DNA of 64,000 nucleotides. Origin: Daphnia pulex (taxonomy: Eukaryota > Arthropoda > Branchiopoda > Diplostraca > Daphniidae). The notes under the pieces are model-generated. The model saw only the letters and a program-made list of their open reading frames with translations. It ran no database searches and was not told the DNA's origin. This document shows, one piece after another, positions 5,830-8,686 of the stretch. Position 1 is the stretch's first letter; the number at the start of each line of letters is the position of its first letter. The stretch lies in contig NC_060026.1 of the NCBI RefSeq assembly GCF_021134715.1, positions 15,305,001-15,369,000 on the forward strand, given 5' to 3'. The translations under genes and the position numbers were made by a program.

Positions 5830-8686
5830 ATGGTTCTCGACATCGATCTATTTCGTGCCGACAAGGGAGGCGATCCCGAAAAGATGAGGGAGAACCAAAG
5901 GAAAAGATACAAGGATGTAAAACTTGTAGACTTGATTGTTGAAAAGGACAACCAATGGAGGCAACGTATGTCTGAACATTTGAATCTCAATTGCATTACA
6001 TTTTTCAGTGTTTCATTTGCATTGCAGTGCGATTCCAACTTGATCAGCTGAACAAGCTGAAGAACTCGGCCAGCAAGGAAATCGGAGAGAAGATGAAGGT
6101 AGTGCCCTTTTTTTGTTTTTGGCTCCTAAATTAAAATTGAGTGAAACGTTTTCACAAATGGTTTTCAGCTGGAACGGAAAAAACCTCCCACACCCAAAAC
6201 TGAATCTCCAGAGGCCAAGAGCCCATTCCAAAATCTGTCCACTCCCCAAAATTTGGAAAATTTGAATTCCCACTTGCAATCTCATAGCTATATTGATGGA
6301 TACACTCCAAGTTATTTGGATTTACTTGTACACGGTTCAGTGCCTAAACCAGTGCTTTCCAGCTATCCACACATAAATCGCTGGTACAATCACATCATTG
6401 CGATTGAAAGTTCTATCCAGGTAAACTGGCTATGCCTACTTACTGGATTTGAATGTTGAAGCATGAGTCGGTCCCCTCACAGTCTTTCCCATTGTAATAG
6501 CATGTCTCCCTGTGTGTCTTCAAAATTCATTACTGAGATTTCGTTTTAAAAAAATCTTTTCTTTCATTTACAGAAAAAGGAACCTGTTGGTGATGATGTT
6601 CTCCCCGATGGACTTGAAGAAATCATGGCCTCCATGAGCCTTACTGGTGAGCAGTTGAAACCACTCACCGTCAACCAAATCAAGAAAGTCAGCTCAATGA
6701 TGGATAAAGCCATTGTCGAAGCCAACAAGAAACTTGATGACACCGAGAAAGAGAGGAATGCTGGTCTGAGAGAGATGGGAAATCATCTCCATCCTTCTTG
6801 CCACGTTAGCGATAATGAGGTGTGCCCCGTTTTGCTGTTTTCGATGGTTGGACTTGGTTAACATGTTATACTGTGTTGCAGGACGAAAATGTGGTTGAGC
6901 GGACGTTTGGCGATTGCGCTTCCCGCAAGAAATACTCGCATGTCGACCTCATCCATATGGTTGAGGGCATGGATGCCGAGCGAGGTACCGTGACTGCCGG
7001 TGGTCGAGGCTACTACCTTCTCGGTCCCATGGTTTTCTTGGAGCAGGTATGAAACACGATAACACCGTGACATTAATGATGGATCATAACCACCACCACC
7101 ACCCTGAAAATCAAACATTTTTTTTTGTCATGCTCCACATCTGTTCTAGGCTCTGATCCAGCTGGCACTGCGAATTCTCCAAACCAAGAGTTACATCGCC
7201 ATGGGAACGCCCTTTTTCATGCGCAAAGATATTATGCAGGATGTCGCCCAACTTTCTCAGTTCGACGACGAACTCTACAAGGTTTTCCTTTCCCACCCAT
7301 TTGTCATTTGTCACTTTTTTCCAGAATTTACAACTAATTGTACAATGTTGACAGGTGATTGGCAAAGGCAGTGAAAAGGCGGAGGACAAGGAGGTGGATG
7401 AAAAGTACTTGATCGCCACTTCTGAGCAGCCAATCGCCGCTTTCCATCGCGACGAGTGGATGAAAGAGTCGGAGTTGCCCAAACGCTACGCCGGAATCTC
7501 GACTTGCTTCCGCCAGGAAGTGGGTTCTCACGGGCGCGATACCCGCGGCATCTTCCGCGTCCATCAATTCCAAAAGGTATACCTTCGACTTTCCCACAGA
7601 GTTTCTTCTACTGTCATAGGGGACGAATGAATATGAAATTTTTGTTTGCCGTCTCCAACCAGGTGGAGCAATTTTGCATCACGTCGCCACACGACAACTT
7701 GTCGTGGCAGATGATGGACGAAATGATTGGCAACGCCGAGGCTTTTTACCAGGCCCTCAACATCCCCTACAGGATTGTCAACATCGTTTCGGGAGCGTTG
7801 AACAACGCTGCAGCCAAGAAACTCGATCTGGAAGCTTGGTTTCCAGGCTCGGGTAATAATTCTTGTCCCTGTCACATCGTCCTTTCATCTTATTTTTAAG
7901 TAGAAAATTATATTATCGTGCGTGTGTCAGCTCCGGTTGATGACCGATTACTAAAGCGGAATGCTTCGTTTCTCCCACCACCACCACCTCACCCCGAGGC
8001 TCTTTTTTGAGAAAAATTTCAACTTAGCGGTGAAAGAATTAAGCCAATCGTGACTGGGTTTCCCTTCTTTTCATTCTTTTTGATAGTCACGATAACAATG
8101 GTTAATAGGGTGACGTGCTGTTGTGAACAATCTCGACGAGGCCACGCCCAGTTATAAGATTATTTCTTTTCAAAAAGAAATTTTGTTCTTTTTTATTTAT
8201 CGGAGAATTGTTTCGTGTTATGGTTCAGGTGCTTTCCGCGAATTGGTCTCGTGCTCAAACTGCCTGGATTATCAGTCACGCCGCTTGCTCATTCGCTACG
8301 GCCAGACTAAGAAAATGAACGCCACGGTGAGGTTATTTTAAAACTGTTTCCTCTTGTGTGTTTCGTGATTGGATTTATTTGATTTTATTTTCAAAAAAAA
8401 TTGCAGACGGACTACGTTCACATGCTGAACGCCACCATGTGCGCCACCACTCGCGTGATTTGCGCCATCCTCGAGCTGAACCAAACGGAGACGGGAATTA
8501 TTATTCCCGAAGTGCTCAAGCCCTTCATGCCTCCCGGTATTCATCCAATTAGGCTGGTGGTTATTGTCTACGTCAACTCACGAAAATTTTGTTTTATTTA
8601 CAGCGTACGCTGAAGAGATCCCGTTCACGAAACCGGCGCCCATCGACGAATTGGAATTGAAGAAGCAACAACAGAAGAAAAAGTAA
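5830..8686 (+). CDS. SARS1: Cytosolic seryl-tRNA synthetase with an inserted GST-C-like exon
   Basis: Charges tRNA(Ser) (and tRNA(Sec)) with serine in the cytosol. Eleven exons: 5830-5965, 6028-6098, 6169-6420, 6574-6819, 6882-7046, 7150-7281, 7355-7576, 7663-7852, 8229-8326, 8407-8536, 8604-8686; all junctions are GT-AG and phases agree, giving 574 residues. The start [16 protein letters not shown] matches animal SerRS. Class II motifs are present: motif 1 around [20 protein letters not shown], motif 2 [20 protein letters not shown], and the motif 3 region [17 protein letters not shown]. The N-terminal tRNA-binding arm spans roughly residues 1-200. Odd: exon 3 (residues 70-153) is not part of normal SerRS; without it the protein is 490 residues. 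The C terminus is a short lysine-rich tail (KKQQQKKK), shorter than the vertebrate UNE-S extension. Exon 3 begins and ends in phase 0, so it could be a cassette exon. Confidence 0.96.
6169..6420 (+). other. Exon 3 of SerRS: eEF1B-type GST-C-like module
   Basis: An 84-codon, phase 0-0 exon flanked by TTTTCAG and GTAAAC. Its first third is proline- and lysine-rich linker ([16 protein letters not shown]). The rest, [19 protein letters not shown] followed by [14 protein letters not shown], closely resembles the N-terminal GST-C-like domain of eEF1B (SYIEGYVPSQADVAVFEA ... ALRWYNHIKSYE), also found in animal CysRS, AIMP3 and other synthetase-complex partners. It sits where the tip of the SerRS tRNA-binding arm is expected, just before KKEPVGDD. 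Similarity is from memory of those families; the insertion itself is read directly from the sequence. Confidence 0.8.

What the first reader, a model, noticed from the sequence alone, without database searches (positions are those of the whole stretch)
6169..6420. Seryl-tRNA synthetase carrying an eEF1B-like GST-C module in the tip of its tRNA-binding arm
Seen: an 84-codon exon in phase 0-0, with clean splice sites, interrupts an otherwise textbook SerRS between EKMK and KKEPVGDD. Known: GST-C-like domains glue together the multi-synthetase complex and eEF1H (MetRS, GluProRS, CysRS, AIMP2/3, eEF1B/G); SerRS normally stands outside that complex. Inference: the exon may tether SerRS to eEF1 or the synthetase complex and, being phase-symmetric, may be alternatively spliced. 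Insertion at the arm tip, not at a terminus, is unusual. I know of no described SerRS with this layout.
Basis: partly seen in the sequence, partly recalled or inferred. Interest (0 to 1): 0.85.

Follow-up and report, generated by a model that had tools for sequence, protein, structure and literature searches.

The report
eEF1B-like module inside seryl-tRNA synthetase
An animal gene for the enzyme that loads serine onto tRNA carries an extra, neatly removable exon that encodes a docking module otherwise found in a translation elongation factor, which suggests that this enzyme can be physically tied to the elongation machinery.

Summary
Window 6169-6420 is an 84-codon, phase 0-0, GT-AG-bounded exon inside an otherwise ordinary cytosolic SerRS gene, between the residues aligned to human SerRS K69 and K70, at the turn of the tRNA-binding arm. 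Both the including (574 aa) and skipping (490 aa) frames are open. The peptide is an eEF1B-type GST-C module: human eEF1beta is its best PDB match (E 2.3e-10), and the genome's own eEF1B domain finds this exon as its only other scored place (E 2e-9; 25 of 57 residues identical, ungapped). Codon position 3 is near-random while position 2 is conserved, so it was long kept as protein. None of 76 archaeal SerRS examined has more than 2 residues there. The precedent is human CysRS, with an eEF1G-associating domain inserted by alternative splicing; my literature searches listed no SerRS of this layout. A related module sits inside this genome's ValRS; none was found in four CysRS regions. Docking to eEF1G and alternative splicing remain inferences: no transcripts, related animal genomes or binding data were available, and the fold search returned no hits.

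The parts
6169..6420 (+). inserted exon: linker of about 19 residues rich in P, K, E and S, then an eEF1B-like GST-C module (exon residues 20-80)
5830..5965 (+). SerRS exon 1, N-terminal tRNA-binding domain
6028..6098 (+). SerRS exon 2, ends ...IGEKMK (human K69)
6099..6168 (+). intron upstream of the inserted exon, 70 nt, gtagtg...ttttcag
6421..6573 (+). intron downstream of the inserted exon, 153 nt, gtaaac...tttacag
6574..6819 (+). SerRS exon after the insert, begins KKEPVGDD (human K70 on)
6882..7046 (+). SerRS exon
7150..7281 (+). SerRS exon
7355..7576 (+). SerRS exon
7663..7852 (+). SerRS exon
8229..8326 (+). SerRS exon
8407..8536 (+). SerRS exon
8604..8686 (+). last SerRS coding exon with stop

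Best explanation
The exon adds an eEF1B-type GST-C docking module to cytosolic SerRS. When it is included, the module hangs on a flexible linker from the tip of the tRNA-binding arm. There it most likely binds the GST-like domain of eEF1G, the partner of eEF1B's own N-terminal domain, and so ties SerRS to the eEF1 complex, near eEF1A, the acceptor of Ser-tRNA. When it is skipped, an ordinary SerRS is made. Shown here: the exon, its place, its homology and its long-term constraint as protein. Inferred: docking to eEF1G, channelling of Ser-tRNA, and regulation by alternative splicing.
For: Best PDB match is elongation factor 1-beta from entry 5dqs. [quoted passage not shown] The eEF1B domain of this genome has the SerRS exon as its only other scored match, E 2.0e-9 (the tool scores only its best candidates). 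Codon-position identities to eEF1B are 0.40/0.58/0.30, i.e. conserved protein with near-random third positions. The partner gene eEF1G is present on C4 (PF00647; its GST-like part), as are two genes with the EF1 GNE domain. [quoted passage not shown] Kim 2000 itself not held). The exon has the lowest GC3 of the 11 coding exons (34 of 84), a weak hint of lower or conditional use.
Against: No transcript or binding evidence. Residues shared by human and own eEF1B are not significantly better kept in the exon than the rest (20 of 35 against 10 of 22, p 0.28), so retention of the eEF1G interface is not shown. The low GC3 is borderline against the three neighbouring exons (p 0.056) and clear only against the later exons (p 2e-6), where GC3 is higher throughout. 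The AlphaFold model of the exon alone is of low confidence (pLDDT 65.6) and had no PDB match. In the whole 574-aa protein the Pfam Arc1p_N_like score falls below its cut-off (23 against 27 bits).
Confidence: 0.55

Rival explanations
1. The module docks SerRS to the multi-synthetase complex (AIMP3-like, GluProRS, MetRS or AIMP2 GST-like domains) rather than to eEF1.
For: GST-like domains hold that complex together (PMC4394549, passages; PMC10452860, passages). A gene that I recognise as AIMP3-like is present (L014; its Arc1p_N_like score of 19.8 bits is below cut-off). Human AIMP3 (eEF1 epsilon-1) is among the weak PDB matches.
Against: AIMP3 matches only at E 0.18, against 2.3e-10 for eEF1beta. 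Human SARS1 is listed among synthetases outside that complex (PMC9166799, passages).
Confidence: 0.15
2. The module does not tether anything; placed at the arm tip beside insertion I it changes tRNA-Ser/Sec binding or SerRS stability.
For: The insert lies 5 residues before human insertion I (G75-N97), which is reported to communicate with the active site (PMC10817482, passages; site).
Against: A whole conserved interaction-type module is more than a spacer would need; the linker of about 19 residues argues for a flexible appendage. Both are inference.
Confidence: 0.17
3. The module pairs with another such module or GST-like protein, for instance the module inside ValRS or the GST-like gene beside AlaRS, building a synthetase assembly peculiar to this lineage.
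For: Module in ValRS; GST-like gene next to AlaRS.
Against: No binding data; the similarities show a shared module type, not an interaction.
Confidence: 0.08
4. The exon is a relic or cryptic exon that is rarely or never spliced in.
For: No transcript data available; the acceptor tract (caaatggttttcag) is interrupted by purines.
Against: Protein-level constraint with near-random third positions, intact frame and splice sites.
Confidence: 0.05

Closest known systems
Human CysRS (CARS1) splice variant with an inserted elongation-factor-associating domain (Kim 2000, seen only as cited in PMC9166799)
   Same: A GST/elongation-factor type module added by splicing to a synthetase that is listed outside the multi-synthetase complex; reported to act on EEF1G
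   Different: Host enzyme is SerRS, not CysRS; insertion at the tip of the tRNA-binding arm, not in the N-terminal GST domain; splicing and binding untested here; no such module found in four CysRS-bearing regions of this genome
eEF1B (eEF1beta) N-terminal domain
   Same: Same module by sequence: 25 of 57 residues identical, ungapped, including SYI.GY.PS..D and RWYNHI
   Different: No exchange-factor domain attached; the phase-2 intron inside the eEF1B module is absent from the SerRS exon
Human ValRS N-terminal GST-like domain (eEF1H complex)
   Same: A GST-like domain ties a synthetase to eEF1 (PMC4394549, passages)
   Different: At the N-terminus, and described as possibly restricted to deuterostomes; here an internal, GST-C-like module in another enzyme
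Human cytosolic SerRS
   Same: The enzyme aligns almost end to end apart from the insert; TIGR00414 400.8 bits, cut-off 301.65
   Different: Human has the small insertion I (G75-N97) and C-terminal UNE-S (PMC10817482, passages) but no module at K69/K70

Membership tests
eEF1B-type GST-C module | Sequence similarity to eEF1B N-terminal domains well above chance | tested here: met
   E 2.3e-10 to 5dqs_D; E 2.0e-9 in the genome from own eEF1B; score 130 against a maximum of 50 in 2000 shuffles
eEF1B-type GST-C module | Pfam profile over cut-off (Arc1p_N_like PF21972, which own and human eEF1B also match) | tested here: met
   Exon alone 27.8 bits, cut-off 27; marginal, and within the whole 574-aa protein only 23 bits
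GST_C (Pfam PF00043, PF14497) | Profile score over cut-off | tested here: not met
   GST_C_3 16.9 against 21.6 bits, GST_C 13.3 against 20.7 bits
eEF1B-type GST-C module | All-helical GST-C fold | tested here: inconclusive
   Four helices predicted but pLDDT 65.6; Foldseek against PDB 0 matches
eEF1B-type GST-C module | Binds eEF1G | not testable with these tools
   needs protein biochemistry
Synthetase with alternatively spliced elongation-factor-associating exon (CysRS type) | Module on its own exon that can be skipped without frame change | tested here: met
   phase 0-0, both products open
Synthetase with alternatively spliced elongation-factor-associating exon (CysRS type) | Alternative splicing observed | not testable with these tools
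   no transcript data on hand
Synthetase with alternatively spliced elongation-factor-associating exon (CysRS type) | Host enzyme is CysRS | tested here: not met
   host is SerRS
Cytosolic SerRS | Seryl_tRNA_N and class II core, near end-to-end match to cytosolic SerRS | tested here: met
   one locus found, the other hits being a SerRS2-like gene on C8 and a SLIMP-like gene on C9 (these two labels are my recognition)

The most novel reading that the evidence does not exclude
In this lineage the eEF1B-like docking module was moved onto a different set of synthetases than in vertebrates: a splice-controlled exon in SerRS at the tRNA-binding arm and a built-in internal module in ValRS, with none seen in the CysRS regions examined. 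That would make an eEF1-centred synthetase assembly in which the cell can dose how much Ser-tRNA is handed directly to eEF1A.
Probability: 0.3. Interest if true: 0.8.

Novelty: new variant of a known kind. Interest (0 to 1): 0.62.

Why it matters
Human SerRS is listed outside the multi-synthetase complex (PMC9166799, passages), and the review passages on SerRS partners that I saw name no eEF1 contact (PMC10817482). A conserved elongation-factor module on its own skippable exon, placed where the enzyme grips its tRNA, would make channelling from a synthetase to eEF1 testable with two natural forms of one gene. It also suggests that the same module was placed on different synthetases (CysRS in humans, SerRS and ValRS here), which bears on why such modules spread.

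Tried and rejected
Fold evidence: AlphaFold of the exon alone gave four helices at low confidence; Foldseek against the PDB returned nothing, so the fold claim rests on sequence.

Related sequences elsewhere: three viral-contig scans found no relative. No related animal genome is held for the window's genome, so presence in other crustaceans could not be tested.

A fused AlaRS-GST gene was considered, because a GST-like gene lies directly behind AlaRS; AlaRS runs into its own stop there, so I treat them as neighbours, but splicing between them was not excluded. A CysRS counterpart was sought with a profile in four CysRS-bearing regions (L034-L037) and not found; a weaker CysRS-profile hit on C11 (E 1.1e-5) was not fetched, and a module split by an intron could be missed. 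Interface retention was tested by residue conservation and was not significant. Splice-site strength was only looked at by eye. PMC3359775 (passages) says that four synthetases carry a GST domain in insects without naming them in the passage seen; I could not check whether SerRS is one.

Full report
What is there. The window holds a complete cytosolic SerRS gene on the + strand, 5830-8686, 11 coding exons counting the insert. NCBIfam serS scores 400.8 bits against a cut-off of 301.65 for the product without the insert. A genome search with that product found this one cytosolic locus; the other related places are a SerRS2-like gene on contig C8 (frames) and a SLIMP-like gene on C9. These two labels are my recognition of the proteins. 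So the exon sits in what appears to be the only cytosolic SerRS.

The exon. 6169-6420 is open over 84 codons and is phase 0 at both ends. Human SerRS aligns as 1-69 before it and 69-486 after it, the second block starting one residue early, so nothing was lost and the insertion is between K69 and K70. Human insertion I is given as G75-N97 (PMC10817482, passages), so the exon enters the same arm region a few residues earlier. I fetched SerRS loci from archaea: the best 80 of 582 confirmed candidates, a capped list. One (L100) gave no hit with the full-length query and three were outside 380-520 aa. In the other 76 the insert columns hold 0-2 residues.

What it encodes. After a linker of about 19 residues comes a module whose best PDB match is elongation factor 1-beta, 5dqs_D, E 2.3e-10; next come a GST chain at E 5.9e-5 and AIMP3 at 0.18. 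Pfam gives Arc1p_N_like 27.8 bits (cut-off 27), with GST_C_3 and GST_C below cut-off; scored within the whole protein, Arc1p_N_like drops to 23 bits. Own and human eEF1B also match Arc1p_N_like. In the whole genome the exon finds itself, then a ValRS place (E 0.005) and an eEF1B exon (E 0.008), then three weaker places that look like chance. In reverse, the eEF1B N-terminal domain finds its own two exons and this exon, E 2.0e-9, and nothing else among the candidates scored. Against eEF1B 25 of 57 residues are identical without a gap. Nucleotide identity by codon position is 0.40, 0.58, 0.30, and 9 of 25 identical residues use the same codon. A sequence that drifted this far at third positions but kept its protein and its frame has been under selection as protein. 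eEF1B has a phase-2 intron inside the module that the SerRS exon lacks, so a simple recent copy of eEF1B genomic exons is unlikely.

Surroundings in the genome. ValRS on C9 carries a related module (23 of 52 residues identical to the SerRS exon; score 91, best of 2000 shuffles 57) between its catalytic core and anticodon-binding domain. The bacterial ValRS 1gax (Thermus by recall) continues there without it, query 164 and query 245 both falling on its residue 597; 4xkz has a short stretch of about 8 residues. This module is in a large open frame together with catalytic-core sequence, so it is probably constitutive. It scores only 12.6 bits with Arc1p_N_like, below cut-off, and the eEF1B query did not list it. 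Human or insect ValRS were not compared here. A profile built from the SerRS exon, own eEF1B, the human eEF1beta stretch and the ValRS module found no module in the four fetched CysRS-bearing regions (its matches to eEF1B and ValRS there are by construction). eEF1G is present, as are two genes with the EF1 GNE domain.

How it most likely works. 5DQS is described as the EEF1G N-terminal domain with EF1B (PMC10452860, passages). The closest precedent, a CARS1 splice variant, is reported to inhibit EEF1G (PMC9166799, passages). By analogy the SerRS module would dock to eEF1G and bring SerRS to the eEF1 complex, with skipping of the exon giving a free enzyme. This is inference. Against it: eEF1B-conserved residues are not preferentially kept (20 of 35 against 10 of 22, p 0.28), and there is no fold confirmation. 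For conditional use there is only a weak hint: the exon has the lowest GC3 of all 11 exons, 34 of 84, p 0.056 against the three neighbouring exons and 2e-6 against the seven later ones.

Geometry. The METTL6-SerRS structure paper places METTL6 contacts at SerRS K12-G13 and M416-M417 (PMC11479938, section 13 read in full, other passages). The insertion site is not one of them, so m3C32 methylation of tRNA-Ser need not be blocked. Effects on tRNA binding through the neighbouring insertion I remain possible.

Literature. Ten searches of open-licence PMC papers listed no title or abstract on a SerRS with a GST-C or eEF1B-like module; subscription journals are mostly not covered. The review of SerRS interactions (PMC10817482) has no occurrence of 'eEF1', and its three 'GST' occurrences are pull-down assays (passages). 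[quoted passage not shown] PMC3359775 (passages) counts four synthetases with a GST domain in insects, unnamed in the passage; this could include an arrangement like the present one. Passages of PMC11580382 and PMC10570016 mention no such SerRS.

Verdict. A real, conserved eEF1B-like module on a skippable exon in SerRS: a new variant of a known kind (CysRS-type elongation-factor-associating exon), in a new enzyme and at a new site.

Noticed in passing
G000:C9:7157561-7157740 (L004; L015 about 7005-7280): ValRS carries an internal eEF1B/GST-C-like module of about 80 residues between catalytic core and anticodon-binding domain, absent from the bacterial ValRS 1gax, in an open frame shared with core sequence; the passages seen in PMC4394549 place the ValRS GST-like domain at the N-terminus and possibly only in deuterostomes.
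   Followed up: partly
L016 minus strand, about 5060-5700 of the reverse complement (G000:C1 near 5128246): A GST-like gene resembling the eEF1G N-terminal part (my recognition) lies directly downstream of AlaRS on the same strand, without an obvious start codon in its first recognisable exon; whether it is separate or joined to AlaRS by splicing is open.
   Followed up: partly
G000:C2:6835995-6837028 and 6854053-6855086: Two CysRS-like copies with nearly equal scores about 18 kb apart, besides CysRS-like genes on C3 and C5.
   Followed up: no
L002 (G000:C9:6751260): SLIMP-like seryl-tRNA synthetase paralogue (my recognition) in one long open frame of 444 codons.
   Followed up: no
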